NCBI GenBank assembly: GCA_025360805.1 | Contig: JANYBK010000070.1 | Location: 1-33,422, forward strand | Length of the DNA stretch: 33,422 nucleotides | Reading direction: 5' to 3' | DNA from: Methanomicrobiales archaeon | GTDB taxonomy: Archaea; Halobacteriota; Methanomicrobia; Methanomicrobiales; Methanospirillaceae | In this document: positions 5,650 through 32,444 of the stretch, piece after piece | Layout of the letters: the number at the start of each line of letters is the position of its first letter | Position numbering within the stretch: the first letter of the stretch is position 1 | Translations under genes and position numbers: made by a program | Notes under the pieces: model-generated | What the model was told of the DNA's origin: nothing | Seen by the model: only the letters and a program-made list of their open reading frames with translations | Databases searched by the model: none

Positions 5650-5652
5650 TAA

Positions 5653-6129: not shown

Positions 6130-6136
6130 CGCAACC

Positions 6137-6646: not shown

Positions 6647-6655
6647 TAATATCAA

Positions 6656-6661
6656 AAGGAG
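6656..6661 (+). promoter_or_regulatory. Strong ribosome binding site for arlH
   Basis: AAGGAG lies 7 bases before the arlH ATG at 6669 and fixes that start. Confidence 0.7.
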
Positions 6662-6668
6662 TTCCTAA

Positions 6669-7400
6669 ATGGCAACCATTTCCGATTTGATGGGGGGCGA
6701 AGACCGGAGAATCCTCTCAACAGGCAACTCGGAACTGGATAAAAAGATAGCCGATGGTCTCCCGCTTGAATCACTCACCCTGATCGAAGGGGAAAATGAT
6801 ACGGGAAAAAGTGTATTGACCCAGCAGATCATCTGGGGAGCAATGAAGCAGGGATTTTCTGTTGACCTCTTCACAACAGAGAGTACAACCAAGAGTTTTC
6901 TCAAACAGATGGAGTCGATGAGCCTTGATATATCCGAGTATTTTGCCTGGGGCTATCTTAAGGTATTTCCTCTTCACGTTGTCGGATTTGAATGGAAAAA
7001 AGAAGACATGGTCGGGATCCTCGCTCATCTGATAACACACATCAAGCAGAGCAAAGCAGAAGTGATAGTCATTGATTCCCTTACCTTATTTACCGAGTAT
7101 GCAGAGACAGACTCTATCCTTACCTTCTTTACAAGCTGCAAATCCCTTGTTGATCACGGCAAGACAATCCTTGTGACCCTTCATACCTATGCATTCGAAG
7201 AGGACACCCTTGTCCGGATACGTTCCATTTCTGATGCCCACCTGAACATGAAAAAAGCCCTGGTCGGGGACAAATTCGTGATGGTTATGGAAGTAAACAA
7301 GGTCCGTGGTGCAAGAAAGACAACCGGAAACCTTGTCAGTTTTGAAGTCCACCCGGGTTATGGAATGAAAGTCATCCCCATGAGCTTTGCGAGGGTCTGA
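6669..7400 (+). CDS. arlH: ArlH, RecA-like regulatory ATPase of the archaellum motor
   Basis: ArlH is a KaiC/RecA-fold protein that binds ATP and docks on the ArlI hexamer. At 243 residues it has the usual length. Walker A is GENDTGKS at residues 41-48. The Walker B strand is EVIVIDSLTLF at about residues 134-144, followed by LVTLHTYAF. As in other ArlH proteins, residues suited to nucleotide binding are present, and the family is regarded as a regulatory nucleotide switch. It is preceded by a clear AAGGAG and followed after one base by arlI, in the standard H-I-J order. Confidence 0.93.
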   Translation: MATISDLMGGEDRRILSTGNSELDKKIADGLPLESLTLIEGENDTGKSVLTQQIIWGAMKQGFSVDLFTTESTTKSFLKQMESMSLDISEYFAWGYLKVFPLHVVGFEWKKEDMVGILAHLITHIKQSKAEVIVIDSLTLFTEYAETDSILTFFTSCKSLVDHGKTILVTLHTYAFEEDTLVRIRSISDAHLNMKKALVGDKFVMVMEVNKVRGARKTTGNLVSFEVHPGYGMKVIPMSFARV

Positions 7401-7401
7401 T

Positions 7402-9270: not shown

Positions 9271-9271
9271 T

Positions 9272-10894
9272 ATGGCAGATATTTTACCGGACAAAAAAGA
9301 AACGAAAGCCAAAAAAGAACTACCGTTTGCATCAACTATTGAAGATCTAAAATTAAAAGTCAATCTGCTGACCGAAGCCAAAAAGATGCCAGCAGATCTG
9401 CTCTTTATGATAACTTACATGGCATCTCTGGGACTTGCCAATGCCACCCGCCCTGAAATTTTTACCTTTGGTGCTAACAGGAAGGAGTACATATCCGCTA
9501 TATATATAGAAAAAGTGGATACATTTGCCAAGAAATGGGGTTTTAGCTATTCAGAATCGTTAAGCATTGTAGCCGAACGTGTAAGCAATACCAATCTAAA
9601 GAGTATGCTCAACCGGTATGCAAATGCGATTGAATCCGGTGTCCCTGATGAGGATTTCTTAAATAACGAGCTCTCAACCGTGCGAACTGTGTACAGGAGC
9701 CAGGTTGAGCAGGGACTCGAGATGCTCAAGAAATGGGGAGATGCTTATATCGCTATGCTCCTGTCAGGGACAGTGATAGCAGTGGTCATGATGATCTCGA
9801 TTGCCATCTATGCCCCATCAGGTATTCAGGGTACATTGAATGTCGCATATGGAATTGTTTTGGCTATCTCCATCGGGGGCAATGCACTCATGTATACATC
9901 GGTTCCCGAGGATCCAAAAACCCATGGTCTGATGACCCGTGCATCGAAAGAACAGGATACGATTCATGCCATGGAAAGGATCATCGTACCTCTCACCATT
10001 ATCGCAGTTATCGTTCTTGTGCTGCTCGGTATTCATGCAGGATTGATTTTTGTTCTCGCAGGAATCCTAATGGCACCGCTTGGCATCATCGGTTTTATTG
10101 ATGATTCCAATATTACCCTTCGGGACGCAGATTTTTCAACATTCATCAGCAGCCTTGGGGCAATCATGGGTGGGCAGGGTACAACTGCAGTAACGGCACT
10201 GGGAAACATCGACCGCAAATCACTCCCGGCTATTGAGTACCTCGTAGATTCTGTTTATTCGAAAATGAACCTGGGGCTGGATAATAAACAGATCTGGGAT
10301 AAATTCATTGGGGAATCCGGAAGCAACCTGATCTACAAATACTTAAATATCTATCTGGATACCGTTACGCTTGGGGGTCCTGCAGAACCCATAGGTAAGG
10401 TAGTGGGATCTTCAGTACTTGAGCAGACACTTCTTAGAGAAAAGAAAGATATGCATGCCAAAAGTTTTTTTATTCTTCTTATCCCGATGCATATCGCAAT
10501 GATTGGAATTTTTGTCGGGCTCTACCAGATCATGGTAGTCCTGACCGGTTCCGTATCGAAAATGATGACACAGTTCCAGAGCACATCGGGTGCCGTATCC
10601 GGAGCAGCGAGCGGGGCTGGTGTATCAGCTGGTTCAGCTATGGGTGGAATGACCATGCTGACTAATTTTCCTGAAAAGGAGATGATGACCTTTGTTGTAA
10701 TTATTGTAACCATCATCACCGTATCAAATATCTTTGCTGCAAGGATAGTCGGAGGAGGGGATCGGTATATGTATTATTTCTACATAGCAATATTCTGTAC
10801 ATGCTCCGGATTCGTACTGCTCGTAGCACCAATGGGAGTCGGTATGTTCTTCAACCCTGAAGCACTCCAGCACATGGGATCATCGGTAAAATAA
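9272..10894 (+). CDS. arlJ: ArlJ, archaellum polytopic membrane platform protein
   Basis: ArlJ is the membrane core of the archaellum motor, related to PilC/GspF/TadC platform proteins, and couples ArlI to the filament. The 540-residue protein has a soluble N-terminal part, a pair of membrane helices near residues 165-215, another group around residues 240-275, a second cytoplasmic domain, then helices around 390-425 and three near the C-terminus. The second half has the TadC-like LVDSVYSKMNLGLDN region. The ATG at 9272 lies one base after the arlI stop. A Gly/Ala/Ser-rich segment (GAVSGAASGAGVSAGSAMGG) sits in the loop before the last helices. Confidence 0.94.
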   Translation: MADILPDKKETKAKKELPFASTIEDLKLKVNLLTEAKKMPADLLFMITYMASLGLANATRPEIFTFGANRKEYISAIYIEKVDTFAKKWGFSYSESLSIVAERVSNTNLKSMLNRYANAIESGVPDEDFLNNELSTVRTVYRSQVEQGLEMLKKWGDAYIAMLLSGTVIAVVMMISIAIYAPSGIQGTLNVAYGIVLAISIGGNALMYTSVPEDPKTHGLMTRASKEQDTIHAMERIIVPLTIIAVIVLVLLGIHAGLIFVLAGILMAPLGIIGFIDDSNITLRDADFSTFISSLGAIMGGQGTTAVTALGNIDRKSLPAIEYLVDSVYSKMNLGLDNKQIWDKFIGESGSNLIYKYLNIYLDTVTLGGPAEPIGKVVGSSVLEQTLLREKKDMHAKSFFILLIPMHIAMIGIFVGLYQIMVVLTGSVSKMMTQFQSTSGAVSGAASGAGVSAGSAMGGMTMLTNFPEKEMMTFVVIIVTIITVSNIFAARIVGGGDRYMYYFYIAIFCTCSGFVLLVAPMGVGMFFNPEALQHMGSSVK

Positions 10895-10904
10895 GAGAAT
10901 CGCA

Positions 10905-12194
10905 ATGAAAGAAAATCTCCGCAGGCCAATACTTTTTGCAGTGATCGTTATCACCGGATCTATTTTGATCCTCTTTGATATACCACTCATCTTTATGTTT
11001 CCCATCATCCTTATTGTGGGATTTATTATTCTCATTGTTCTCGGTGCGATAACCGTTACAGATATAAAAACCGCTCTGAAAAACTTAAAACCGGCAAATT
11101 TAAAAAATATCGGCATATTCAAAAAACTCGGTGGAATGAAAGTTTTTAAAAAATCCACACCCGTTCCGAAAGATAAAACGCAACCGCAAAAGGCAGAGAC
11201 AAAAAAACCTCAAAAAGTACCTGGACCGAAAAAAGGTATCCGTCTTCATATCAGTTCGTTTGTATCCTCCATTAAATCACTGGGTTCAGTGTTAAAAGCA
11301 CGCGGCAAATCCGAAAAAAATGTCGGGGACATCAATAAGCAGCTTGACAGGACTGTCCGTGAAAAAGTGGAGAGAGTTTCGGCACTTGAAATTGCCGGAA
11401 CTGCGGAAAAGAACGCTGTCCAATTACCTTCCAGTGGTGCAGGAACAACTGCCATTGGTACTACAAAAGATCAGGACCCCTTTCTGTCCTTGTCTGAGGA
11501 TGAATTTGATTCGAGTCTGCTGGATTCATTAGATGGACTTGAATCCCCGCAATCAATTTCAGGAATTGAAAAAGGATCTTCCAATTCAGTTCCGGACCCC
11601 AGTTCAATAGACATCAATGATTCTGATATCCCCCTCCCCTCTCTCGATCTTGACGGTGAAGCAGGAAATATTCTCAGGGACAATGCAGAGGGACTTGAAG
11701 AGTTCAGTGGTCTTGAAGGTGGTGACTCAATTGACAGTGACTTTGGAGATCTCGAAAACCTGAGCCTGGACGATGTTGATCTGGATGATGATTCAGAAGA
11801 AAAAACTCCTCAGCCCCCAGCAACTCCGGCTGAACCGGCTCCGATAATTGATGTTGCTCCAGATAAATCAGATAAAGGTCAGGTAAAAACAGACTGGATC
11901 AAATCTGATGCTCCGAATGAAGCAGGACAAACTGACGAACAGATCTCAACTCAATCTGATATAGCAGCGTTCTCCAGCGGTAGCGGGGGTACCGATGCAG
12001 ATCTTTTAAGCTCGCTTGCTTCTGAGGTAAAGCATATCAAAAAAGAGAAAAATCTTGCCCTGCTTCGTGAATTAAAGGATTTCAAAGCCCCAGCTGTGGA
12101 GATTGAGAGTGAACTTACTGAAGTCTATACACGGATGAACTCTATCAAGGAAACTCAGAAAAAGATTACTTCTCCCCCAGAAGGAATAAAATAA
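10905..12194 (+). CDS. Uncharacterised arl-associated protein: two N-terminal TM helices and a long acidic cytosolic tail
   Basis: I do not recognise this 429-residue protein. Two hydrophobic helices, about residues 8-30 and 33-53, form a membrane hairpin. A basic stretch follows (about 55-125, many Lys and Pro), then a region dominated by Asp, Ser, Glu and Leu (about 180-320; for example DFGDLENLSLDDVDLDDD) that is probably disordered. A charged helical end (about 365-429, EVKHIKKEKNLALLRELKDF) may form a coiled coil. It lies between arlJ and cheF, starts 11 bases after arlJ and is on the same strand, so a role at the motor-chemotaxis interface is inferred. In topology it recalls crenarchaeal ArlX (membrane anchor plus coiled coil), but no sequence match is claimed. 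Confidence 0.8.
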   Translation: MKENLRRPILFAVIVITGSILILFDIPLIFMFPIILIVGFIILIVLGAITVTDIKTALKNLKPANLKNIGIFKKLGGMKVFKKSTPVPKDKTQPQKAETKKPQKVPGPKKGIRLHISSFVSSIKSLGSVLKARGKSEKNVGDINKQLDRTVREKVERVSALEIAGTAEKNAVQLPSSGAGTTAIGTTKDQDPFLSLSEDEFDSSLLDSLDGLESPQSISGIEKGSSNSVPDPSSIDINDSDIPLPSLDLDGEAGNILRDNAEGLEEFSGLEGGDSIDSDFGDLENLSLDDVDLDDDSEEKTPQPPATPAEPAPIIDVAPDKSDKGQVKTDWIKSDAPNEAGQTDEQISTQSDIAAFSSGSGGTDADLLSSLASEVKHIKKEKNLALLRELKDFKAPAVEIESELTEVYTRMNSIKETQKKITSPPEGIK

Positions 12195-12264
12195 GCCATA
12201 GCACTGCATACATGTATCCGGATATCTTTAATCTCAACAAAAAAGAAAATATTATCGAGGTTCA

Positions 12265-13074
12265 ATGACGGAAGTACCGGTAAAAATTGAGTTCAACAAG
12301 GAATGGATCGTCACTAAACTGAACGTTAGTGAAGATCGTATGGTAATTCCGGCTCCGATAAACAAAGAGATCCTCTTTAAGTCCGTATTAGACGTTTCTG
12401 AAAAGAAAAACATTCTCATCATTACGGTAAAAACGGACACTGAAGTAGTGTATAAAATACTCTCTGTTGAAAAAGTCCTCCAGTTTTTAAAAGTACGTAT
12501 TCTCCCGCTCTGCAATGCCTACAGGCTCATGGCGTACTTCATGTCACCAGCCATCCGTGGGGGTGTGATGATCAAGGAAGCCGTATGGGAGAAGGGCAGT
12601 GTGGTAGTAGTCAAGAGCGGTATCTGGTTTGTCGGTGCGGTAAAACAGATCAGTGTTCCCATTACTGAAGTGGCGGCAATAGAGCTCACCAAACGGGATG
12701 TGCAGGGAAAACCTACAGAAGTGATAAGAATTGATTATCTTGATTCAGGTGAAGTGGTCTCAAGCCTTGTGCTCTGTCCCATTTCAACTTTGCAGGTTCT
12801 CTATAATTTCTTAAAAGAGACAACAAAAAGCATGGATATGAAAGGAACTGAGCTGGATGGGATTGACCTGCAGGTTGCCATGCTCGTATATTCAGGAATG
12901 GACTCTCACGCCACAGAGAATATGTTAAACCTCCCTCACAAACAACTCGACCAGATCTATGATAAAATATTAGCACTGGGCCTTGCTGAGGTGGTCATTA
13001 TAAGAAGAGAGATTCAGCTCACACCCAAAGGGGTAAGATATATTACAGATGCCTCCAAAACGCAAACAAATTAA
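12265..13074 (+). CDS. cheF: CheF, archaeal adaptor linking chemotaxis proteins to the archaellum
   Basis: CheF (DUF439 family) is the archaea-specific protein through which CheY acts on the archaellum motor via ArlC/D/E; CheC and CheD are also reported partners. The 269-residue protein shows the family layout: an N-terminal beta-rich region (IEFNKEWIVTKLNVSEDRM), a central domain (SVVVVKSGIWFVGAVKQISV) and a C-terminal winged-helix-like region (LDQIYDKILALGLAEVV, then LTPKGVRYITD). A GAGGT sequence at about 12257 supports the start. It follows the arl genes after a 70-base gap and precedes cheY by 68 bases, bridging the motor and chemotaxis blocks. Confidence 0.85.
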   Translation: MTEVPVKIEFNKEWIVTKLNVSEDRMVIPAPINKEILFKSVLDVSEKKNILIITVKTDTEVVYKILSVEKVLQFLKVRILPLCNAYRLMAYFMSPAIRGGVMIKEAVWEKGSVVVVKSGIWFVGAVKQISVPITEVAAIELTKRDVQGKPTEVIRIDYLDSGEVVSSLVLCPISTLQVLYNFLKETTKSMDMKGTELDGIDLQVAMLVYSGMDSHATENMLNLPHKQLDQIYDKILALGLAEVVIIRREIQLTPKGVRYITDASKTQTN

Positions 13075-13102
13075 AAATTACACTCTTTTTATCACCAATA
13101 CT

Positions 13103-13110
13103 TCTATATG
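13103..13110 (+). promoter_or_regulatory. Possible TATA element for the che genes
   Basis: In the 68-base gap between cheF and cheY, tctatatg lies about 33 bases before the cheY ATG. Transcription from about 13133 would leave a leader of roughly 10 bases. This suggests the che block may have its own promoter besides read-through from arl. It is a pattern match only. Confidence 0.35.
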
Positions 13111-13142
13111 TAATCATCTCACAAATTGTAGTTTGATCGTCA

Positions 13143-13505
13143 ATGGGAAAGATTTTGATCGTGGATGATACGCTCTTCATGCGAACCCTTATTAAAAACA
13201 TTTTGTTTACTGGCGGACATTCGATTGCCGGTGAAGCAGGGGATGGCGAAGAAGCGATAGCAAAATACAAGGAATTGAAACCAGATCTCGTCACTATGGA
13301 TGTCGTGATGCCAAAGATGAATGGTATTGAGGCATTAAAGGGCATCATTGCGATTGACCCGGCTGCAAAGATCATCATGTGTACAGCAGTTGGCCAGGAA
13401 CAGATGGTCAAACTCGCGATAAAGAGCGGTGCAAAAGGGTATATTGTCAAACCGTTCCAGGCACCCAAGGTTCTTGAGGAAGTTAAAAACGTACTGGCTA
13501 CCTGA
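13143..13505 (+). CDS. cheY: CheY, chemotaxis response regulator
   Basis: This is a single receiver domain of 120 residues. It has the acidic pair D8-D9, the phospho-acceptor D53 (LVTMDVVMPKMNG), the switch Thr region (IIMCTAVGQ) and the conserved Lys in YIVKPFQ. Phosphorylated CheY delivers the signal from CheA to the archaellum, through CheF in archaea. It is the first gene of the che block, 2 bases ahead of cheB. Confidence 0.95.
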   Translation: MGKILIVDDTLFMRTLIKNILFTGGHSIAGEAGDGEEAIAKYKELKPDLVTMDVVMPKMNGIEALKGIIAIDPAAKIIMCTAVGQEQMVKLAIKSGAKGYIVKPFQAPKVLEEVKNVLAT

Positions 13506-13507
13506 TT

Positions 13508-14548
13508 ATGGTTAAAGTTCTTATCGTAGATGATTCCGTATTCATGCGGACAATCATTAAGGATATGCTGACAAAAGATAAGTCCATAGAAATAGTGGGA
13601 ACTGCAACAAATGGTGTTGAAGCATTAGAGAAGATCCAGAGTCTCGCGCCGGATCTAATAACCCTCGATATTGAAATGCCCGTAATGAACGGGATTGAAG
13701 TATTAAAAGAACTTCAGAAACAGTCAAAGCGCCCAAAAATTCTGGTGCTGAGCACACTCACTTCAGAGGGTGCTGAAATGACTACTCAGGCAATTCAGCT
13801 TGGTGCTGATGATTTCATGCTCAAGCCAAAGGATATTCCCCACGTGCGTGATATAAGTCAGGAACTGATCGATAAAGTCAAACATCTCATCTCCCTTCCG
13901 TCAAAATTTGTAACCCGAAAAGAACCTGTCAGTACAGAACATGCCGACAGGGTAGTCCTCATTGGATCATCAGCTGGTGGTCCGCCAATGCTCGATACGC
14001 TTCTGGCAGAACTCCCAGCCGATCTTCCGGCAGGCATCATCGTCACCCAGCACATGCCTCCGGGTTTTACCAAACCCCTTGCAGAACGGTTCAACCGGAT
14101 ATCGCAGATCCCCGTCAAAGAAACAGAAACCGGAGATTCCATACTGACCGGAAGGATTCTTCTCTCAAGAGCTGGTGTGCATACTGTAATCAGCGGAGCA
14201 TTATCCGGAAACAATAAAAAAATTGGGCGCATCATTCATACCAATTCCCCTCCGCTTCATGGAGTAAAACCCGCTGTTGACAAAACTTACGAATCTGCAG
14301 TCACAGTCTATGGAAAAAACATTGTTTCAGTAACATTGAGTGGGATGGGAAACGATGCCGGTGCCGGAGCACTGGCGATAAAAGAGGCCGGTGGAAAAAA
14401 TATTGTTTGTGATGAGAAGGACTGCCTTGTCTATGGCATGGTACGATCAGTCATAAAGAATAATGCTGCCGACCAGACCCTGCCTCTCAAAAAGCTTGCA
14501 AAAGAGATTGAGAAGGCAGTGCGTGGAATGGAGGGCATAGATGTCTGA
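13508..14548 (+). CDS. cheB: CheB, chemoreceptor methylesterase/deamidase
   Basis: CheB removes methyl groups from receptor glutamates to adapt signalling. The 346-residue protein has an N-terminal receiver domain (D8-D9, acceptor D54 in LITLDIEMPVMNG, Lys in MLKPKD) and a C-terminal methylesterase domain with the catalytic Ser in IGSSAGGPP, His in TQHMPPGFT and Asp in SGMGNDAGAG. All catalytic residues are present. It overlaps cheA by 8 bases. The matching methyltransferase gene cheR is not in the window. Confidence 0.96.
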   Translation: MVKVLIVDDSVFMRTIIKDMLTKDKSIEIVGTATNGVEALEKIQSLAPDLITLDIEMPVMNGIEVLKELQKQSKRPKILVLSTLTSEGAEMTTQAIQLGADDFMLKPKDIPHVRDISQELIDKVKHLISLPSKFVTRKEPVSTEHADRVVLIGSSAGGPPMLDTLLAELPADLPAGIIVTQHMPPGFTKPLAERFNRISQIPVKETETGDSILTGRILLSRAGVHTVISGALSGNNKKIGRIIHTNSPPLHGVKPAVDKTYESAVTVYGKNIVSVTLSGMGNDAGAGALAIKEAGGKNIVCDEKDCLVYGMVRSVIKNNAADQTLPLKKLAKEIEKAVRGMEGIDV

Positions 14549-16514
14549 ATTTGAAGCATACAGGGGCCTTTTTGTTGCAGAATCACGTGAGAATCACGAG
14601 ATGCTGGTAAGGAACATGCTGATCCTGGAAAAAGGTGGTAGTCAGACGGCTATTGACGAGATATTCCGTTCGATTCACACCCTCAAAGGTGCATCGGCAT
14701 CCATGGGTTTTATGGAAATGGAGAGACTCTGCCATACCATGGAAGATGTTTTCCAGATGATACGCAGCGGTAGCGCTGTGATTACAGCAGACTTAAACAA
14801 CATGCTATTAGCATGCTCAGATATTGTTGAGTTGATGCTGGATGATGTGGAAGGTGGTGGAGACTCATCATCTGTCAATCCTGATGAACAGGTAAAAGCG
14901 TTAAAAAAATGGCTTTCTCAAAATACTGGTAAGCCAATTGACAAAGCAACAAAACCAGAGGTCATAACCAGTAAGGCAACCGCAGAAATAAAGGCCCCCG
15001 CAGAAAAAATACCAGAAATAGTCGATAATACGGATCGCCCGCGTTATTCCATAACAATAAAGGTTGCAGATGACTGTGTTATGAAAGATATCCGGGCAAT
15101 GTTAGCCATTGGAAATCTTGAATCCCTTGGAACTATCCTGTCTTGTAATCCGTCACGTGAGGCTATCGATGAAGGTGTTTTTGATGGCATTCTTCAATTG
15201 AAGATAGCCAGTGATGTGGGCGAGGATGCTCTGAAAACCGCTGCAACCGGAACTGATATCGCATCCGTTGAAATTACACCTGTTCAAAAAGAAGTGCCAG
15301 CCCCATTACCTGAAGTTTCTGACGATGCAAAACCTGAAAAACCAGATACAAAGCAGCAATCTGCAAGTGCGGATAAAAACCGTGAAATAAAGAACTTAAG
15401 AGTTGACATCACCCAGCTCGACCATATCATGAATCTCGTTGAGGATCTGGTGATTAACCGCGGCAGGCTCAAACAGATTGCCGAACAGAATAAGATCAAG
15501 GAGATGGATGAAGCTATCGGGATGGTGGAGCGATCGGTATCGGATCTCCAGAACCTGATGATGAACATCCGCATGATTCCCTTAAATCATATATTTAACC
15601 GCCTTCCAAGGGTGGTCCGCGATGTTGCCCAGTATGATGGGAAAGAAGTGGAATTTGTTATCGAAGGTGGGGAGACGGAACTTGACAGGAGTGTCATGGA
15701 CGGGCTCAATGATCCGCTCCTTCACTTAATCAGGAACGCAGTGAATCATGGGATCGAATCCCCCGAAGTGAGGGAAAAGGCCGGCAAACCCAGAAAAGGA
15801 TATGTTAAACTATCAGCTCACCGTGATCGGGATAATGTAATCATCGAACTGATTGATGATGGTGGCGGAATCAATGTTGAAAAGGTCAAGTCAAAAGCGG
15901 TAGAAAAAGGTTTAATATCACAAGAAAGTGCTGAGACATTGACTACGGATCAGGCAATAGATCTCCTGTTCCTGCCGGGATTTTCAACAGCTGATAAAAT
16001 ATCAGACATCAGTGGCCGGGGTGTGGGACTCGATGTGGTAAAACGATCCATCGAAGCCCTGAAAGGTTCAATACGGGTTGAGACAAACACGGGAAAAGGG
16101 AGCCGTTTTGAATTGCTGCTCCCCCCCACAATGGCCATAGTTGACGTAATGATAGTGCGGATCAATAAGCGCAGACTTGCCATTCCTATCAGCAGTATTG
16201 TTGAAGTGGCAAACTTCAAAGACGAAACAACCCACAGGATTGGCAAGAGTGATGCAATTTTACTTCGTGATGAAGTTCTTGAAGTCTTTTTACTCGATGA
16301 TATGATGGGCAAATCCGAAGACCGGGAGATCCTTATCGTAGTGCAGTACCAGAAACGGAAGTGCTGTATCGCAGTCGATATAGTTGAAGGAAAGCAGGAG
16401 GTTGTGGTAAAACCTTTAAGCAGCATTATCGGCAACACCCGCGGTGTGAGCGGGATTACCATCCTTGGTGACGGTGAAGTAGTACCGGTACTGGATGTAA
16501 ATACCATGGTGTAG
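14541..16514 (+). CDS. cheA: CheA, chemotaxis sensor histidine kinase
   Basis: CheA autophosphorylates under receptor control and passes phosphate to CheY and CheB. The 657-residue protein shows the full domain order: an HPt domain with phospho-accepting H46 (FRSIHTLKGASASMGF); a linker and regulator-binding region (about 165-240); a dimerisation domain (LDHIMNLVEDLVINRGRL, about 295-350); the kinase ATP-binding boxes N (LLHLIRNAVNHGIESPEV), G1 (LIDDGGGIN) and G2 (SGRGVGLDVVKRSI); and a C-terminal CheW-like domain (about 530-657). The start overlaps the end of cheB and has GGAGGG ahead of it. CheW is not encoded nearby. Confidence 0.97.
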   Translation: MSEFEAYRGLFVAESRENHEMLVRNMLILEKGGSQTAIDEIFRSIHTLKGASASMGFMEMERLCHTMEDVFQMIRSGSAVITADLNNMLLACSDIVELMLDDVEGGGDSSSVNPDEQVKALKKWLSQNTGKPIDKATKPEVITSKATAEIKAPAEKIPEIVDNTDRPRYSITIKVADDCVMKDIRAMLAIGNLESLGTILSCNPSREAIDEGVFDGILQLKIASDVGEDALKTAATGTDIASVEITPVQKEVPAPLPEVSDDAKPEKPDTKQQSASADKNREIKNLRVDITQLDHIMNLVEDLVINRGRLKQIAEQNKIKEMDEAIGMVERSVSDLQNLMMNIRMIPLNHIFNRLPRVVRDVAQYDGKEVEFVIEGGETELDRSVMDGLNDPLLHLIRNAVNHGIESPEVREKAGKPRKGYVKLSAHRDRDNVIIELIDDGGGINVEKVKSKAVEKGLISQESAETLTTDQAIDLLFLPGFSTADKISDISGRGVGLDVVKRSIEALKGSIRVETNTGKGSRFELLLPPTMAIVDVMIVRINKRRLAIPISSIVEVANFKDETTHRIGKSDAILLRDEVLEVFLLDDMMGKSEDREILIVVQYQKRKCCIAVDIVEGKQEVVVKPLSSIIGNTRGVSGITILGDGEVVPVLDVNTMV

Positions 16515-16523
16515 GTGAATGAG

Positions 16524-17135
16524 ATGAAATTATCAGCAGTGCAGGCAGATGCAATTCAGGAACTGGGAAATATCGGTGCAGCTCACGCGGCCACAACATT
16601 ATCACAGATGCTATCGAGCACAGTTTCGATGAGCGTTCCGGCAATCAAGGCTGTTGACCTCTCCGAGCTGGGAAACCATATCGGCGACGAGTCAGCTGCA
16701 ATGGTTGTATTTGAGCTTCAGGGCGAGATCCCTCATGGTGGTTTTATTATTTTTTATATCACCAGGGAATCAGCCATGCGACTGACCAACACCATGCTTG
16801 GAATGACCGATATGGATCGTGCATTTAATGAAATGGACCAGAGTGCCCTTTTAGAAGTGGGAAATATCATGGTCTCTGCATTTTTGGATGCTACAGCAGA
16901 GCTGCTGGGTTTTATAATGCTCCCATCTCCTCCGGCTCTCAGTATCGATATGGCCCATGCAGCAATGGAGTCACTCATCGCCCAGCTGGGAGAGGAAGTG
17001 GATGAAGTTTTGCTCTTCTCAACAGAACTTATCTGTGAAGAGCACAAGATTGACAGTGATATTATCATGCTGCCGGAGATCAGTACGTTAAAAAGAATTA
17101 CTGAACTTCTTGAAGCGATGATGAAAAGCACATAA
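16524..17135 (+). CDS. cheC: CheC, CheY-P phosphatase
   Basis: CheC dephosphorylates CheY-P and partners with CheD. Both helical active-site motifs of the family are present: IQELGNIGAAHAATTLSQML near the N-terminus and ALLEVGNIMVSAFLDATAE in the second half, each with the Glu-x-x-Asn pair. I place the start at the ATG at 16524 because GGTGA lies 5 bases ahead of it; a GTG at 16515, directly after the cheA stop, would add three residues. It sits between cheA and cheD, as in other euryarchaeal che operons. Confidence 0.93.
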   Translation: MKLSAVQADAIQELGNIGAAHAATTLSQMLSSTVSMSVPAIKAVDLSELGNHIGDESAAMVVFELQGEIPHGGFIIFYITRESAMRLTNTMLGMTDMDRAFNEMDQSALLEVGNIMVSAFLDATAELLGFIMLPSPPALSIDMAHAAMESLIAQLGEEVDEVLLFSTELICEEHKIDSDIIMLPEISTLKRITELLEAMMKST

Positions 17136-17150
17136 CACTAGTGAACCAAA

Positions 17151-17645
17151 ATGGCTGAACCCAATCCACAGACCATGCAAACGGCGATGATTGGCATCGG
17201 CGAATACCGGGTCGGTTCCTTTCCCATGATGACCATCGGACTGGGTTCATGTATCGGGCTTACTTTGTATGACCCGCAAAAAAAAATTGGTGCAATGGTA
17301 CATATTATGCTGCCAGATAGTGGCGGCAGGACAGATCGCCCCGGGAAATATGCAGATACTGCAATTCCCCTGCTCTTAAAAGAGTTAGATAAGACCGGCA
17401 GCAGCAGCAACCGTTCACTTGTTGCAAAAATGGCGGGTGGGGCATGCATGTTTGAGTATTTCGGCACCAATCTCAATATCGGTGAAAGAAATACTGAAAA
17501 AGTCCGGATTATTTTAAAAGAGCTGGGCATCAAGTTGTCGGCTGAAGATGTTGGGGGAAAGGTCGGGCGAACGGTTACATTCCTCCCGGCTAGTGGCGGA
17601 AAAGTCTCTATCAGGAGAGCAGATGGCGTCACGAGCGAGTTATGA
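17151..17645 (+). CDS. cheD: CheD, chemoreceptor glutamine deamidase
   Basis: CheD deamidates receptor glutamines and, with CheC, forms a feedback loop on CheY-P. In 164 residues it carries the catalytic set T28, C34 (TIGLGSCIG) and H51 (MVHIMLP), with the spacing expected for the family, and the downstream KMAGGACMFEYFG motif. Its end overlaps the start of the following secreted-protein gene by 23 bases, which implies co-transcription. Confidence 0.94.
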   Translation: MAEPNPQTMQTAMIGIGEYRVGSFPMMTIGLGSCIGLTLYDPQKKIGAMVHIMLPDSGGRTDRPGKYADTAIPLLLKELDKTGSSSNRSLVAKMAGGACMFEYFGTNLNIGERNTEKVRIILKELGIKLSAEDVGGKVGRTVTFLPASGGKVSIRRADGVTSEL

Positions 17646-20207: not shown

Positions 20208-21980
20208 TTACGTTTCGTCTGCTGTATAATAATAGAATTCACCGGTTCCTTTCTGTTCACGGTCAAGGAATGAACCGGGTTTATTGATTCGTGGCCGTCC
20301 GCTCTGATCCCGTCTAAAGGTAACGTCGAGTTCATTTAAGAACCGGTTCATACCGTCCCGCATCTTAAAAGGACCTGCTGCGGTGCCTGCAATCCCGGGC
20401 TCACCTTCAAAGACTAAAATGCGCTCGCTGATCATATCGATTAAGTAAATGTCGTGATCGATCACCATGATGCCGACTTGTTTTCCTTCAGCATGATGCT
20501 TGATGATCCGGGTGACCTTAACCCGCTGCTCGACATCGAGATGTGCACTGGGTTCATCGAGGATATACACATCAGCTTCACGGGATAGACACCCGGCAAT
20601 TGTCACGCGCTGTAGCTCCCCGCCACTGAGAGTATCTACCGATGACTGGAGTATGGGTTCTAATGAGAGCGATTCTATGATCTCGTGCTGGTAATACGAT
20701 GTGTCATATTTTGTTGTGCACCTGCGCAGGTACATCTCCACGCTGTCGGACGTGTCGGCTTTGATATACTGGGGTTTATAAGATATGCGCAGGGATGATT
20801 CCATCTTTCCTGTTGTCGGAGTTTCAACCCCCGCAAGGAGTTTTGCAAAGGTGCTCTTACCCATACCGTTAGCTCCAACAACCCCGAGCACTTCGCCGCT
20901 CCTTATTGTGCCCCCGGAGACTGTGAGATGGAACGATTCATATTCCTTTGTCATTGCCGGAATCTCGAAGAGATCGTCCCGGTTGGATCCTTTATCATGC
21001 GCACGCTTCTCAAATACCACCTGTGTTGTGCGGAACCGTACGTTCTCTTCGGTTAAAAATCCCTCAAGGTACTGATTGATGCCTACACGGACACCCTTAG
21101 GCCGGGTGATGATACCAAAGACAGCTGGTTTACCATAGCCTACGTGGACGGTATCTGCAAGCATATCGAGGATTGCCAGATCGTGTTCTACTACAACTAC
21201 TGGACGTTCAGCTGCAAGTTCCCGGATCAGTTTTGCTGCAGCAATCCTTTGGTAAATATCCAGAAACGGAGTGATTTCATCGAGGAAGTAGAGGTCTGCA
21301 TCACGCGCAAGGCATGCAGCGATTGCCACCCGCTGCAGTTCTCCGCCGCTTAATGTGCTGATATCGTGGTCAAGTATTGCATTGAGCTTGAGTACAGGGA
21401 GTATCTCTGAGAGTTTATTGCGTTCATCGGTTTTTTTGAGGAGTTCCCGGACTGTTCCTGCAAATAATTTGGGAATGTAATCAATGTACTGGGGTTTTGA
21501 TGCAATCTTCAAGCTCTTTTTTGAGACCGTCTGGAGATAATCGAAAAGTTCGGTGCCCGCGTAGCGCTTGAAGATCTCGTCCCATGCAACTTCGGTATCG
21601 AAATTACCTAGATTGGGGCGGAGTTGTCCTGACAGGATTTTTACAGCAGTACTTTTACCGATACCGTTAGCACCAAGAATACCAGTGACTTTTCCTTCAA
21701 GAGGGATTGGGAGACCGTAGAGAGCAAAACCATTCATACCGTACCTGTGCGTAGGGTGCTCAAGTTCTTCAGGCAGGCTGACGATGTCGATCGCATTGAA
21801 CGGACATTTTTTTATGCAGATCCCGCAACCGACACATAGTTCTTCGGATATGACGGCTTTTCCCTCATCTCCGATAATAATTGTTTCGTCACCGGTCCTG
21901 ACACGGGGACAATAAATAATGCATTCGGTGCCGCATTTTTTTGAGTGGCATCGATCTTTATGAACTATCGCAATTCTCAT
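20208..21980 (-). CDS. abcE1: ABCE1/Rli1 ribosome-recycling ATPase
   Basis: ABCE1 splits terminated or stalled ribosomes together with aRF1 or Pelota. The 590-residue protein has the full architecture. The N-terminal iron-sulfur domain has Cys groups in CHSKKCGTECIIYCP and CVGCGICIKKCPFN. NBD1 has Walker A GANGIGKST, signature LSGGELQRVAIA and Walker B LYFLDEITPFLD. NBD2 has Walker A GANGMGKST, signature LSGGELQRVTIA and Walker B VYILDEPSAHLD. The NBD1 D-loop region reads DEITPFLD where many homologues have DEPSSYLD. I chose the ATG at 21980 (MRIAIVHKDRC) rather than a TTG three codons earlier, because it gives the conserved N-terminus. It lies 18 bases after the EMC6-like gene and opposite NFACT and Pelota. 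Confidence 0.96.
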   Translation of the reverse strand: MRIAIVHKDRCHSKKCGTECIIYCPRVRTGDETIIIGDEGKAVISEELCVGCGICIKKCPFNAIDIVSLPEELEHPTHRYGMNGFALYGLPIPLEGKVTGILGANGIGKSTAVKILSGQLRPNLGNFDTEVAWDEIFKRYAGTELFDYLQTVSKKSLKIASKPQYIDYIPKLFAGTVRELLKKTDERNKLSEILPVLKLNAILDHDISTLSGGELQRVAIAACLARDADLYFLDEITPFLDIYQRIAAAKLIRELAAERPVVVVEHDLAILDMLADTVHVGYGKPAVFGIITRPKGVRVGINQYLEGFLTEENVRFRTTQVVFEKRAHDKGSNRDDLFEIPAMTKEYESFHLTVSGGTIRSGEVLGVVGANGMGKSTFAKLLAGVETPTTGKMESSLRISYKPQYIKADTSDSVEMYLRRCTTKYDTSYYQHEIIESLSLEPILQSSVDTLSGGELQRVTIAGCLSREADVYILDEPSAHLDVEQRVKVTRIIKHHAEGKQVGIMVIDHDIYLIDMISERILVFEGEPGIAGTAAGPFKMRDGMNRFLNELDVTFRRDQSGRPRINKPGSFLDREQKGTGEFYYYTADET

Positions 21981-21998
21981 GAGGATCAAAAATGTTTA

Positions 21999-22349
21999 TT
22001 ATTTAGGCATTGCAGTCAGCAGGATTGTCCATGACATGTACCAGAAGGCAAATGTCATGAATCCCTGGTAGAACCAGTCCTTTGCACCGAGTTTTTGGGT
22101 ATCCATATGCAGTAGCATAAAAATATGCTTCTGGACAACAATTCCTGCAATCATCAGCATGAGTGCAAGAAGCCCGGAATCTGTGCTGAAGGATTTGCCA
22201 ATGTAGTATGAAAGTCCACCCACAATGATACCAATGAGACTGGCTGCAAGTGTCCGCTTGATGCGTTCAATGTGTTCTGCCTGTTTGTCTGCCTTGGTCT
22301 TCTGTTTCTTGGTCTGGACTGGTTGTTCTTCAATAATCTCGTCGCTCAT
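21999..22349 (-). CDS. EMC6-like small membrane protein
   Basis: This 116-residue protein has a charged cytosolic N-terminus (about 30 residues, Lys/Glu/Gln-rich) and three membrane helices at about residues 33-51 (TLAASLIGIIVGGLSYYIG), 58-77 (GLLALMLMIAGIVVQKHIF) and 92-112 (YQGFMTFAFWYMSWTILLT). Length and topology, and the Tyr/Trp/Phe-rich third helix, resemble archaeal homologues of EMC6, a subunit of the ER membrane protein insertion complex in eukaryotes. The match is by recollection of the family and by topology, so it is moderate. It is the first gene of the minus-strand run with ABCE1 and is divergent from NFACT across 59 bases. Confidence 0.6.
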   Translation of the reverse strand: MSDEIIEEQPVQTKKQKTKADKQAEHIERIKRTLAASLIGIIVGGLSYYIGKSFSTDSGLLALMLMIAGIVVQKHIFMLLHMDTQKLGAKDWFYQGFMTFAFWYMSWTILLTAMPK

Positions 22350-22408
22350 CCCGTTACACCAGTAGTCTTATTTTTTAGTGCGCAAGCCATATGTAATTTG
22401 GTACATAC
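22350..22408. promoter_or_regulatory. Divergent promoter region between the EMC6-like/ABCE1 and NFACT/Pelota units
   Basis: Only 59 bases separate the two opposing start codons. On the minus strand CTAAAAAATAAG (about 22365-22376) is TATA-like at about the distance for a leaderless transcript. On the plus strand catatgta (about 22389-22396) is a weaker candidate; if used, transcription would begin near 22415 and would favour the second in-frame ATG (22427) of NFACT. Confidence 0.35.
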
Positions 22409-24304
22409 ATGGCATCCGAACAGGGCATGAGCGGAATCGACGTTAAGGCGATGACGTCAGAATTGTGTGATAAGCTGCCGCTCTGGATCGACAAGGTCTA
22501 CCAGTTCGATTCAAGAACTCTCGGTATCCGGCTTAACGGAGAGAACAAAGCCAGAAATCTGCTGCTCGTTGAGTCTGGCAGGAGGGCCCATCTGGTAAAG
22601 GAATTTCCCGCACCCCCAAAAAACCCGCCCCAGTATGCAATGCTCCTGCGCAAGTACTTGTCCGGTGGAAAGGTGCTTGCTATCCACCAGCATGGACTTG
22701 AACGAATCCTGATCTTCGATGTGGGTAAAGGGACCACTGTATACCATCTGATCATTGAACTCTTCGATGAAGGAAACGTTATACTGACCAATGAAGAATA
22801 CAAAATTGTCAAACCTCTCCGGCATCACCGGTTCAAGGAACGTGAAATTGTTCCCAATGCAGTGTACCAACTGTCGGCAGTTGATCCCACTGCATCGTTA
22901 GAGAACCTGACAGCTGTACTTAAAGGTGAAGAGCGGGATCTTGTCCGGGCGCTGGCTATGGGATGTATGCTCGGTGGCGCCTATGCAGAGTATATCTGCG
23001 TAAAAGCAGGGCAGGAAAAAACAATGCCGGCAGTATCGGCTGATCCGGCTCTTCTGTTTACGGCGGTTCAGGAGTTTTTTGACCAGGTGCTGCACTCACG
23101 CACCCCGGTCATCTCGGCAAAGCACTGCGAATCGGTTGACATCCGGGGCGGAACCGATCAGCAGACGTTTTTGAGTTTTTCTGATGCCCTTGAAGCATTC
23201 TATCCCCTGACAAAGAAAGAGACTGCAACAAAAGCGGCAAAACCCAAATTCTCAAAAGAAGAGCGGATCAGGAAATACCAGGAATCTGCCATAAAAAAAT
23301 TCGATGAGAAAGTTGCAAAAACTGAAGAGATTGTTGCTGCCATGTACGAGAATTACCAGTTTATCTCACAACTGATCACCTCTCTGGATGCAGCAAGCAA
23401 GCAACTCTCATGGCAGGAGATCGAGCGACATCTCAAAGGGGCAACATCTGCTGATGCAAAAAAGATCACGGCATTTTATCCCGATGAAGCGGCTGTTGAA
23501 GTTGACATTGGAAAACGGGTAAAAATTTATGTGCATGAAGGCATTGAGCAGAATGCAGGCCGGTATTACGATGTCATAAAGAAATTCAGGAAGAAGAAAG
23601 CCGGTGCTCTTGTAGCAATGAAGAACGTGGTTGTCAAAAAGAAAGTACAACGACGCGATATTATCCCGTTAAAGAAACTCTGGTATCACCGCTTCCGCTG
23701 GTTTATCACAAGCGATGGTATTGTGGTCCTTGGTGGACGTGATGCATCCCAGAACGAGGAACTGGTCAAGAAATATATGGCCGGCGGAGATCTCTTTGTG
23801 CATGCCGATGTGCATGGTGCAAGTGTCGTAATTGTCAAAGGTAAAACTGAACATATGGACGAAGTGGCCCAGTTTGCTGCTTCCTACTCCGGCGCATGGC
23901 GCAGCGGGCATTTCTCTGCTGAAGTCTATAGTGCCCTTCCCGCTCAGGTAAGTAAGACTCCTGAATCAGGGGAATTTGTCTCACGGGGTTCATTCATAGT
24001 CCGTGGCGAACGTACCTGGTACCGGAATGTGCCGCTATCTGTGGGTATCGGGCTTATGCTTGAACCAAATGCAGCAGTAATTGGCGGTCCGCCATCAGTG
24101 ATCAAGGGAAAATGCAAGGCATATAACGAGCTTAAGCCGGGACAGTTCGAACCAAATGATATTGCAAAGAAGATACTGCGTCTTTTGAAGAGCAAGATCT
24201 CTGACGAGGAGGAAAAGGCGCTCAAAGGCATCCTTAATACCGATACCGTTGCAGCCTTCGTTCCCCCCGGGGGTTCTGATATAGTAGGGCAGCATGAAGG
24301 CTGA
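22409..24304 (+). CDS. rqcH: NFACT-family ribosome quality-control protein (RqcH/Rqc2/NEMF homologue)
   Basis: NFACT proteins bind large ribosomal subunits that carry stalled nascent chains and recruit Ala-tRNA to tail them. The 631-residue protein has the NFACT-N region (MSGIDVKAMTSELCDKLPLW at the start, then RNLLLVESGRRAHLV and the AIHQHGLERILIFDV segment), a helix-hairpin region, a coiled coil (about 285-345, FSKEERIRKYQESAIKKFDE) and the NFACT-R domain (about 420-525, LWYHRFRWFITSDGIVVLGG and LFVHADVHGASVVIVKG). Residues 98-99 are Glu-Arg where the family motif is Asp-Arg. No large C-terminal NFACT-C domain follows. The ATG at 22409 is used; the ATG at 22427 is also possible. The stop overlaps the start of pelota by 11 bases. 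Confidence 0.93.
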   Translation: MASEQGMSGIDVKAMTSELCDKLPLWIDKVYQFDSRTLGIRLNGENKARNLLLVESGRRAHLVKEFPAPPKNPPQYAMLLRKYLSGGKVLAIHQHGLERILIFDVGKGTTVYHLIIELFDEGNVILTNEEYKIVKPLRHHRFKEREIVPNAVYQLSAVDPTASLENLTAVLKGEERDLVRALAMGCMLGGAYAEYICVKAGQEKTMPAVSADPALLFTAVQEFFDQVLHSRTPVISAKHCESVDIRGGTDQQTFLSFSDALEAFYPLTKKETATKAAKPKFSKEERIRKYQESAIKKFDEKVAKTEEIVAAMYENYQFISQLITSLDAASKQLSWQEIERHLKGATSADAKKITAFYPDEAAVEVDIGKRVKIYVHEGIEQNAGRYYDVIKKFRKKKAGALVAMKNVVVKKKVQRRDIIPLKKLWYHRFRWFITSDGIVVLGGRDASQNEELVKKYMAGGDLFVHADVHGASVVIVKGKTEHMDEVAQFAASYSGAWRSGHFSAEVYSALPAQVSKTPESGEFVSRGSFIVRGERTWYRNVPLSVGIGLMLEPNAAVIGGPPSVIKGKCKAYNELKPGQFEPNDIAKKILRLLKSKISDEEEKALKGILNTDTVAAFVPPGGSDIVGQHEG

Positions 24305-25319
24305 TTGCGCAGACCTAAAAGGTAACAATGGCGAAGTTCGGCTGTTTCCAGAAAGTGTAGATGATCTCTGGCATCTTCAGCACCTTGTCGCACCCGGAGA
24401 TCTCATCTTTGCCACCACGTTTCGGAGCGTGGATACCGCAAGTGACAAACTCCGCCCGGAGAAGATGGAAAAGCGCCCGGTAAGACTCGGTGTCCGGGTT
24501 GAACGTGTAGAGTTCTCACAACACGGTGTCAGGCTCCGTATCAGCGGGGTGATCGAGCATGGCATTGAAATTGGCGCATACCACACGATCAATGTAGAGA
24601 CGGGTTTTGAGATCTCGATAATCAAGCAGTGGCGTCCCCATGAACTTGAGCGCATCGAACGGGCGGTGAAATCCTCAGCATTCAGCCTGATCCATATCCT
24701 CACAATCGAAGAAGGGGAAGCCGAACTCTTCAGGCTCCGGCAATACGGCCCGGAGAGCGTAGTAACCTTCACTGCCGGCAGCGGCAAAGGAGGAGAGTCA
24801 GACAACCGTCCTGCATTCTTTGAACAGGTGCTGGCTCCTCTTTTAGCAATCGATGGACCGCTGATCATTGCCGGGCCGGGATTTATCAAAGATGATTTCA
24901 TAAAATATGCCAAGAACAAGGGAAGTCCGGTTGCAGAGAAAGCGATCAGTGTCGAGACACGGCGCATCGGACGGGGCGCGGTTCAGGATGTGATTGGCAA
25001 GGGTGCGCTTGAGAAACTGATCGATGATCTACAGCTTTCCCGCGAGGTGAAGTTCATGGACGAGGTGCTCTGCCGGATCGCACAGGACGGGGCGGTTGCC
25101 TATGGGCGGCAGGAAGTTAAGGATGCTATCGGGTATGGCGCAGTCGAGCAGGTGCTGGTTGCAGATACGCTGCTGCGGGACCCTGCAACTATGGCACTTA
25201 TCGAGAACGCAGAAGCGATGCGGGCAGTTGTTGTTGTGCTCTCCTCCAGTTTTGAGCCCGGGGAGCGACTTGTAGCGCTGGGCGGGATTGCAGCATTACT
25301 CAGGTACAAACTGGTATAA
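24294..25319 (+). CDS. pelA: Pelota (Dom34/aPelota), stalled-ribosome rescue factor
   Basis: Pelota is the release-factor-like protein that recognises ribosomes with an empty A site and, with aEF1A and ABCE1, frees them. The 341-residue protein shows the three-domain layout: an N-terminal Sm-like domain (about 1-130, GEVRLFPESVDDLWHLQHLV and RVERVEFSQHGVRLRISGVI), a central domain (about 135-245, GPLIIAGPGFIKDDFIKYAK) and a C-terminal domain (about 250-341, GAVAYGRQEVKDAIGYGAVE). No GGQ motif is seen, as expected for Pelota rather than aRF1. It begins inside the end of the NFACT gene, so the two are probably translated from one mRNA. Confidence 0.95.
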   Translation: MKADCADLKGNNGEVRLFPESVDDLWHLQHLVAPGDLIFATTFRSVDTASDKLRPEKMEKRPVRLGVRVERVEFSQHGVRLRISGVIEHGIEIGAYHTINVETGFEISIIKQWRPHELERIERAVKSSAFSLIHILTIEEGEAELFRLRQYGPESVVTFTAGSGKGGESDNRPAFFEQVLAPLLAIDGPLIIAGPGFIKDDFIKYAKNKGSPVAEKAISVETRRIGRGAVQDVIGKGALEKLIDDLQLSREVKFMDEVLCRIAQDGAVAYGRQEVKDAIGYGAVEQVLVADTLLRDPATMALIENAEAMRAVVVVLSSSFEPGERLVALGGIAALLRYKLV

Positions 25320-31118: not shown

Positions 31119-32444
31119 TTAATCATTTCGGGAGAGCAGGAAAAAGGCGATACACGGGATCAAGTAAAGGATGGTTTCCGGGATGAGGCCAAATGAGGAA
31201 ACCTGGCTGTCAATAAGCAGTCCGGCAACTGCGGTTATTGGGAAAAAAAGGAGCCGCAGGGAAATATTGTTCACCCGCGCCGCGCCCACTCCCGGATAGA
31301 TAAGCCTCCCACTTCCAGAAGCATGTTTCCAGAGGATAATCATGATCAGACCGGAGATGAGGACATTGGCGTGAAACAGGATCCCATACGGAACCGGCAT
31401 GTCGGAGATCGAATACAGGAGCGATGTTAGTGGCATGAAAATGAGAGCGAGGACAAAAATGAAGGAGACATATACGAAATACCGGTCAAGTGCACGGATG
31501 TATCGCAACATTTCGAAGAACAGGATATACAATATTGCAAAGATGATGAACAGGAAGACAAAAGTCACCAGATCCCCCAGTACCCCGTCACCCATGTATT
31601 CCGTAAGGAGTGTCAGGTCATCACTGCCGGATAACTTGGGCAGAGGGATATTGTTCCTGATGATAAGCGTCATAATAAAGGCAAAGACCCCGTTCATCAT
31701 GATCTCGAACATGTCTTGCGGGACTATCCCTTTGCAGATACTGTCCGGGCTGTGATTACTACACTCGGTTTCCTTAACGATACCACTGTCAATCCTGCAG
31801 CTCCCCCCGCTTGCCTTAAGATTTCTCCAGGAGAATAACGATGTGAGTGCAAACGCCCCCATGGTAATATAGTAAATGTATTGTGTGTAGGGAAGATCAC
31901 AGGCTGCAAGGATGATGCCGGCAACTGCAGTTACCGGCAGAAAGATCATCTTGAGCGTTATGCAATCCATCTGCCAGCCGAAAACACCGGGCCTCATCAC
32001 CGCTGGTGTGCGGGTGATATGGACCCACTCGAAAAAAAGGAAAAGACCCAGAAGGAGCATGATGCAATGGAACAGGACCGAAAAAAAGGATTTATTCGGA
32101 AAAAACACCGTGTAATGGCACCATACCGGTATCATAATCAATAGCATCAGGACAGCAATGTGGAGATAAAGATAGGTCCGGTCAATGCGGGCAACCATGT
32201 GAAAAACATGAAACGCGAGGATCCATATCATACCGATGATCAGGTATGCGGTGAGAAAACTCAGGATATCCGGAAGCTGCAAAAGCCCGAAAACATGTGG
32301 TGATACCCTCTCGATCACATCGCCGAATGCCGGTATCCGGATCTTGGTAAAGAGAAGAAGCAGTGTAAAGACGAAGATTGAATTCGTCAGCCTGCCGATA
32401 TTTACCTTTGTTACCGGTCCTTCCGTACCAATATCCTGAGGCAT
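31119..32444 (-). CDS. TMEM175/DUF1211-like membrane protein with two tandem units
   Basis: The 441-residue protein has about 12 predicted membrane helices in two similar halves. Each half begins with a helix resembling the DGVFAIAITLL helix of TMEM175 potassium channels: NSIFVFTLLLLFTKIRIP in half 1 and NGVFAFIMTLIIRNNIPLP in half 2. Each then has an Arg-x2-Asp-Arg motif (HMVARIDRTYLYL; RYIRALDRYFVYV) and closes with a matching segment (ITLKMIFLPVTAVAGIIL; ISLRLLFFPITAVAGLLI). The hallmark FSD is replaced by LTN and MMN. Prokaryotic members are usually single-unit proteins; this two-unit layout is like animal TMEM175. Ion conduction is therefore plausible but unproven. I use the ATG at 32444; a TTG three codons earlier is possible. 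Confidence 0.7.
   Translation of the reverse strand: MPQDIGTEGPVTKVNIGRLTNSIFVFTLLLLFTKIRIPAFGDVIERVSPHVFGLLQLPDILSFLTAYLIIGMIWILAFHVFHMVARIDRTYLYLHIAVLMLLIMIPVWCHYTVFFPNKSFFSVLFHCIMLLLGLFLFFEWVHITRTPAVMRPGVFGWQMDCITLKMIFLPVTAVAGIILAACDLPYTQYIYYITMGAFALTSLFSWRNLKASGGSCRIDSGIVKETECSNHSPDSICKGIVPQDMFEIMMNGVFAFIMTLIIRNNIPLPKLSGSDDLTLLTEYMGDGVLGDLVTFVFLFIIFAILYILFFEMLRYIRALDRYFVYVSFIFVLALIFMPLTSLLYSISDMPVPYGILFHANVLISGLIMIILWKHASGSGRLIYPGVGAARVNNISLRLLFFPITAVAGLLIDSQVSSFGLIPETILYLIPCIAFFLLSRND

What the first reader, a model, noticed from the sequence alone, without database searches (positions are those of the whole stretch)
31119..32444. Archaeal two-unit TMEM175-like protein without the FSD motif
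The protein shows clear internal duplication (ITLKMIFLPVTAVAGIIL versus ISLRLLFFPITAVAGLLI, and paired RxxDR motifs), with each half resembling a single 6-TM TMEM175 unit. Prokaryotic TMEM175 proteins are generally single-unit tetramers, while the animal protein is a two-unit dimer. Here the same fusion seems to exist in an archaeon, and the FSD hallmark is changed in both halves, so its pore may differ or be lost.
Basis: partly seen in the sequence, partly recalled or inferred. Interest (0 to 1): 0.6.

Follow-up and report, generated by a model that had tools for sequence, protein, structure and literature searches.

The report
Archaeal double-unit TMEM175-type channel protein
A methane-producing archaeon carries a fused, two-unit relative of the animal lysosomal potassium channel TMEM175; related archaea keep the same two units as separate neighbouring genes, so this lineage shows how a channel built of identical subunits can become a built-in heteromer, with its usual subunit-clamping and pore residues replaced.

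Summary
The 441-aa ORF (31119-32444, minus) has two 6-helix units. Both pass the Pfam TMEM175 cut-off (45.5 and 38 bits against 25), and the full-length model matches human TMEM175 (TM-score up to 0.77). The FSD motif is LTN in the first unit and MMN in the second.

Relatives add the main result. In one family of Methanomicrobiales (18 of 108 genomes) the units form two subfamilies, N and C, either fused (8 genomes) or as adjacent genes, N then C, usually overlapping by 4 bp. One single fused clade is rejected (AU p=2e-9). Shared ancestry with the animal fusion is rejected too (p=0.003-0.009).

The Asp-to-Asn change is older than the fusion: single-unit paralogues share it. The RxxxFSD/His/Asn network is replaced. 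Single-unit relatives carry Glu(-4) and Arg(-3); N units mostly keep only Arg, C units only Glu, as expected of obligate partners. N units lack the selectivity threonine; C units keep it. A pore-lining Leu (CmTMEM175 Leu30) is Lys/Arg in C units.

Best reading: a 2N+2C TMEM175-fold pore; conduction and ion are unproven. New variant of a known kind. Pore loss is untested.

The parts
31119..32444 (-). Whole ORF, 441 aa, two-unit TMEM175-fold protein (an alternative TTG start at 32453 would add 3 residues)
   Evidence: orthologues in G063 (89%) and G064 (83%) keep the same length
31824..32411 (-). N unit, residues 12-207, six helices (13-33, 49-82, 89-114, 119-145, 156-181, 187-211)
   Evidence: PF06736 45.5 bits; N-unit profile A4 270 bits; AlphaFold2
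31731..31823 (-). Linker, residues 208-238, low confidence; both unit ends expected on the cytoplasmic side, as in TMEM175
   Evidence: pLDDT under 50 at residues 215-237; alignment A1
31122..31730 (-). C unit, residues 239-441, six helices (243-265, 277-314, 321-346, 350-377, 388-413, 423-438)
   Evidence: PF06736 38.0 bits; C-unit profile A3 278 bits; AlphaFold2
32382..32390 (-). LTN (residues 19-21) in place of FSD in TM1; Arg18 at -3, Gly17 at -4, Asn15 at -6
31692..31700 (-). MMN (residues 249-251) in place of FSD in TM7; Glu247 at -4, Asp244 at -7
32346..32369 (-). N-unit pore positions: Phe26 (+5, gate layer), Leu29 (+8, where canonical members have Thr), Thr33 (+12, where CmTMEM175 has pore-lining Leu30)
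   Evidence: pore roles from PMC7176437 and PMC7141809
31656..31679 (-). C-unit pore positions: Phe256 (+5), Thr259 (+8, kept), Arg263 (+12, Leu in canonical members)
   Evidence: pore roles from PMC7176437 and PMC7141809

Best explanation
It is a TMEM175-fold membrane protein whose chain holds two different units, N and C. Two chains probably form a four-unit ring (N-C-N-C) around one pore lined by TM1 of each unit, as in human TMEM175. The two units arose from a single-unit homotetramer of the Asp-to-Asn clade by tandem duplication (sister origin likely, not proven). They first worked as a heteromer of two translationally coupled genes, and were then joined into one chain, in this lineage and more than once in the family. 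The ring is no longer clamped by the RxxxFSD-His-Trp-Asn network; a new contact between Arg(-3) of N units and Glu(-4) of C units at alternating interfaces probably replaces it. The pore is hydrophobic with a Phe gate layer. Only the C units supply the threonine layer, and C units put a Lys/Arg where canonical members have a pore-lining Leu. The likely activity is a weakly selective, gated small-ion leak across the plasma membrane, probably cationic. SHOWN by computation: homology of both halves, fold, gene-pair relatives, residue pattern, purifying selection, mixed fused and unfused states, independence from animals. INFERRED: stoichiometry, the Arg-Glu contact, conduction, and the ion.
For: Both units pass Pfam PF06736. 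The model (pTM 0.78, pLDDT 80.6) matches human TMEM175 along its whole length, TM-score 0.64-0.77, E down to 6e-9. Relatives occur as adjacent N and C genes, 9 of 12 pairs overlapping by exactly 4 bp, several with a purine-rich Shine-Dalgarno-like stretch before the C start. N and C trees agree on the main groups. Residue counts: single-unit ITN relatives E(-4) 15/15 and R(-3) 15/15; N units R(-3) 18/20 and E(-4) 3/20; C units E(-4) 21/21 and R(-3) 0/21; T(+8) 0/20 in N, 21/21 in C. dN/dS is 0.27-0.33 among three fused orthologues.
Against: No structure, oligomer measurement or electrophysiology. AlphaFold2 was trained on human TMEM175, so the placing of the two halves may be partly remembered, and only a monomer was modelled without access to coordinates. 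The network that holds known TMEM175 rings together is absent. Lys/Arg near the outer pore does not favour cation flow. Gene neighbours are not conserved across lineages and give no functional hint.
Confidence: 0.6

Rival explanations
1. Same fold and ring, but no longer a K+/cation channel: the Lys/Arg near the outer pore and the lost network make it anion-permeable or a charge-gated pore.
For: Position +12 is Lys/Arg in 21/21 C units, 14/20 N units and 15/15 ITN single units, but hydrophobic in most canonical archaeal units (L17 I4 V3 T3). CmTMEM175 Leu30 at this position faces the pore and human Leu53/Leu278 line the vestibule (PMC7176437; PMC7141809).
Against: In MtTMEM175 the equivalent Leu42 does not face the pore, so the charge could snorkel outward. 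The window's own N unit has Thr33 there, so its ring would have two charges, not four. C units keep the threonine layer that acts in K+ selectivity.
Confidence: 0.25
2. A non-conducting or decaying TMEM175 relative.
For: The FSD network is gone. One fused copy, in G069/G070, is further degraded (N-unit R(-3) to Gly, C-unit N to Cys).
Against: Purifying selection over the whole chain. The D-to-N state is fixed across N, C and ITN units with its own invariant residues. ORFs are intact in all 8 fused cases, except that G060 contains masked bases.
Confidence: 0.12
3. The fusion is shared with, or transferred from, animal TMEM175.
For: Same two-unit architecture and full-length structural match.
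Against: Human repeats fall with CmTMEM175, outside the D-to-N clade. AU tests reject repeat 1 with N (p=0.003), repeat 2 with C (p=0.009) and all four together (p=0.003). Human repeats are long branches, so this is strong but not absolute. Unfused N and C genes exist in archaea.
Confidence: 0.02
4. Assembly artefact: two separate genes joined by a sequencing error.
For: The window genome is a draft in 253 contigs; relatives have overlapping gene pairs one frameshift away from fusion.
Against: The same fused ORF of equal length occurs in G063 and G064 at 89 and 83% identity, and another fused form occurs in two single-contig genomes, G069 and G070. The linker shows dN/dS of 0.12-0.34 (few sites).
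Confidence: 0.01

Closest known systems
Human TMEM175 (two-repeat lysosomal K+/H+ channel, homodimer; PDB 6W8N, 6WC9, 7UNM)
   Same: Two 6-TM units in one chain; full-length structural match; Pfam PF06736 in both units
   Different: Human keeps RxxxFSD, Ile46/Ile271, Thr49/Thr274 and Leu53/Leu278; here FSD is LTN/MMN, the gate layer is Phe, N-unit Thr is Leu, and the C-unit +12 residue is Arg. Independent origin
Single-unit prokaryotic TMEM175 (CmTMEM175 5VRE, MtTMEM175 6HD8; homotetramers)
   Same: Each unit has the fold and passes the family profile; C unit keeps Ala(+4) and Thr(+8)
   Different: Two different units per chain; no R(-6), D0, TM2 His or TM3 Asn
ITN-type single-unit paralogues in the same archaea (own genome C72, L004)
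   Same: Same clade (support 0.996); same R-to-N and D-to-N change, His in TM3, Lys/Arg at +12
   Different: One unit per gene; each carries both E(-4) and R(-3), and keeps Thr(+8)
Adjacent N/C gene pairs in Methanospirillum, Methanolinea and Methanoregula
   Same: Orthologous halves in the same order
   Different: Two coupled genes instead of one fused gene

Membership tests
TMEM175 family (PF06736) | Match to the curated Pfam profile above gathering score | tested here: met
   45.5 and 38.0 bits, cut-off 25
TMEM175 family (PF06736) | Six transmembrane helices per unit with the TMEM175 fold | tested here: met
   12 helices; Foldseek top hits all TMEM175, TM-score to 0.77
TMEM175 channel (functional definition) | RxxxFSD motif in TM1 | tested here: not met
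   N unit N(-6)...LTN, C unit M(-6)...MMN
TMEM175 channel (functional definition) | Partner residues of the motif: TM2 Trp and His, TM3 Asn | tested here: not met
   N unit keeps Trp74 only; His is lost in both; TM3 Asn is His95 in N and Ser327 in C
TMEM175 channel (functional definition) | Threonine layer at +8 of the pore helix | tested here: inconclusive
   Kept in C (Thr259), Leu29 in N
TMEM175 channel (functional definition) | K+ or other cation conduction | not testable with these tools
   Needs electrophysiology or flux assay
Two-repeat TMEM175 as in animals | Two tandem units in one chain with the same relative arrangement | tested here: met
   Full-length match to human chains over about 445 columns
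Two-repeat TMEM175 as in animals | Common ancestry of the fusion | tested here: not met
   AU p 0.003-0.009 against
Two-repeat TMEM175 as in animals | Homodimer with four-unit pore | not testable with these tools
   Only a monomer could be modelled

The most novel reading that the evidence does not exclude
A TMEM175-fold pore that has become an obligate N/C heteromer held by a new Arg-Glu clamp, with a positively charged outer pore and a changed ion preference (possibly anions), in a lineage where the switch from homotetramer to gene pair to fused chain can be read step by step and the fused state arose repeatedly.
Probability: 0.3. Interest if true: 0.82.

Novelty: new variant of a known kind. 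Interest (0 to 1): 0.62.

Why it matters
Reviews state that prokaryotic TMEM175 is a single-unit tetramer and the mammalian one a two-unit dimer (PMC10216561). Here a prokaryotic lineage shows the intermediate steps: single unit, coupled heteromeric pair, fused chain. It offers natural proteins to test what the RxxxFSD network, the threonine layer and the pore leucines really do, since all are altered here while the fold persists.

Tried and rejected
Assembly artefact: rejected. Shared ancestry with the animal fusion: rejected by AU tests. A single fusion event for all fused genes: rejected (p=1.7e-9); also for the window group plus the other two Methanoregula groups (p=4e-38) and for G054/G060 plus G069a/G070a (p=1e-4). 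The last is not fully settled, because the linkers of G054 and G069a share RTPDVPAP, which would suit one fusion followed by splits. Conserved gene neighbourhood as a functional clue: none across lineages; only close relatives share CYTH-like, phosphoesterase-like and FKBP-like neighbours. NCBIfam: no hit. Names for prior work: no paper holds both TMEM175 and Methanoregula. Tandem TMEM175 genes in another family of the order (L091, L092) were checked and are canonical LTD units without N/C features. A search around L060 in another group was not accepted by the tool. The apparent 514-aa frame in G009 proved to be two separate single-unit genes.

Full report
WHAT IS THERE. The ORF at 31119-32444 (minus) encodes 441 aa. 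Each half matches Pfam PF06736 TMEM175 above its gathering score (45.5 and 38.0 bits, cut-off 25). The halves are homologous to each other (BLASTP E=2e-16; Smith-Waterman 185 against a shuffle maximum of 86). The genome is a draft of 2.5 Mb in 253 contigs, 88% complete, and holds four further single-unit TMEM175 genes. The nearest relatives G063 and G064 have contigs of the same length as records titled Methanoregula sp. (6771 and 48099 bases), so the host is very probably a Methanoregula.

STRUCTURE. AlphaFold2 from 31 aligned relatives gives pLDDT 80.6, pTM 0.78 and six helices in each half with a disordered linker at 215-237. Foldseek against the PDB returns eleven human TMEM175 chains first, TM-score 0.64-0.77 along about 445 columns, then CmTMEM175 5VRE for one unit. 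AlphaFold2 has seen human TMEM175, so the mutual placing of the halves is supportive rather than independent evidence.

RELATIVES: FUSED OR PAIRED. In 108 genomes of the family, 18 hold N/C relatives. Eight have one fused ORF (G000, G063, G064, G054, G060, G069, G070, G008). The others, and G069 and G070 a second time, have two adjacent genes, N then C. Of 12 complete pairs, nine overlap by exactly 4 bp and three by 14-56 bp; several have a purine-rich Shine-Dalgarno-like stretch before the C start, which suggests coupled translation. Named records include Methanoregula, Methanolinea and Methanospirillum. A C-unit profile over 393 genomes of the phylum finds strong matches only in this family; other matches are below about 107 bits, as for paralogues. 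PF06736 over 295 genomes of the phylum (about 100 matches) finds two ORFs with two units, both in this family.

TREES. Units fall into an N clade and a C clade. A clade of single-unit paralogues with ITN or LTN in place of FSD joins them, together with L060 (support 0.996, FastTree; 98 SH-aLRT). Whether N and C are sisters is unresolved (AU p=0.47 for the sister arrangement, not rejected). The N tree and the C tree agree on the main groups. On the joint tree the fused state needs four changes, and one fused clade is rejected (lnL 142 lower, p=1.7e-9). Fusion is the likely direction because the outgroups are single units, but splits cannot be excluded: the linkers of G054 and G069a share RTPDVPAP although the tree separates them (p=1e-4). 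Human repeats lie with CmTMEM175; uniting them with N, with C or with both is rejected (p=0.003, 0.009, 0.003). They are long branches, so some caution is due.

RESIDUES (offsets from the Asp of FSD). Canonical archaeal units (27): R(-6) 27, D0 27, A(+4) 27, T(+8) 27, TM2 Trp 27, TM3 Asn 25. ITN single units (15): N(-6), E(-4), R(-3), N0, A(+4), T(+8), TM3 His all 15, and R/K(+12) 15. N units (20 with TM1): N(-6) 20, R(-3) 18, E(-4) 3, N0 19, T(+8) 0 (Leu 15), K/R(+12) 14; the window has Thr33. C units (21 with TM1): E(-4) 21, R(-3) 0, N0 19, T(+8) 21, K/R(+12) 21, TM2 Trp to Tyr in 18 of 22, and Glu at Trp+5 in 22 of 22, where N units mostly have His (16 of 21). TM3 is His in all N units and mostly Ser in C units. 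The RxxxFSD, His, Trp and Asn residues form the intra- and inter-subunit network of known TMEM175 (PMC7141809; PMC7176437). Thr38 of MtTMEM175 and Thr49/Thr274 of the human protein act in K+ selectivity (PMC7176437). Position +12 is CmTMEM175 Leu30, one of three pore-lining hydrophobic layers, and human Leu53/Leu278; in MtTMEM175 the equivalent Leu42 does not face the pore.

INTERPRETATION. The ancestor of this clade exchanged both charged partners of the old network for Asn and gained R(-3) beside the conserved E(-4). After duplication the C unit lost R(-3) (already in the earliest-branching pairs G005 and G008) and later most N units lost E(-4). Such complementary loss is what an obligate heteromer with alternating N/C contacts would show. 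That R(-3) and E(-4) touch is an inference, since no coordinates were available. The heteromeric ring would have two threonines and two leucines in the selectivity layer. I expect a weakly selective small-ion leak, probably cationic, with an anion-permeable or charge-gated pore as the serious rival.

SELECTION. dN/dS among G000, G063 and G064 is 0.27-0.33 for the whole gene, so the fused gene is maintained.

LIMITS. No functional data; monomer model only; bacteria outside the phylum were not searched for two-unit members, so priority in prokaryotes as a whole is not claimed; Lee et al. 2017 was not held and is cited through PMC7176437.

Noticed in passing
window 20208-25319: Genes that look like ABCE1/RLI, a small membrane protein, RqcH/NFACT and Pelota lie side by side, a possible ribosome-rescue cluster (read from sequence, no profile search).
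   Followed up: no
window 4636-17645: Apparent archaellum genes (F, G, H, I, J types) followed by chemotaxis genes of CheY, CheB, CheA, CheC and CheD types (read from sequence).
   Followed up: no
window 3-4157: Very long ORF of near-identical TPR repeats running off the contig end (1385 aa, incomplete).
   Followed up: no
L042:8387-9739 and L037:1449-2800: G069 (and G070) hold both a fused copy and a separate N/C pair; the fused copy has lost R(-3) in N and the Asn in C, so it may be specialised or relaxed.
   Followed up: partly
L091, L092: Tandem pairs of canonical TMEM175 genes (LTD motif) in another family of the order: a second, unrelated tandem arrangement.
   Followed up: partly
L010 and L011 linkers: Linkers of two fused proteins that the tree separates share RTPDVPAP; shared fusion with later splits, or recombination, is possible.
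   Followed up: partly
L060:5717-6340: Single D-to-N unit (VERLTN) in a Euryarchaeota MAG with no C unit beside it; a possible early branch of the clade.
   Followed up: partly
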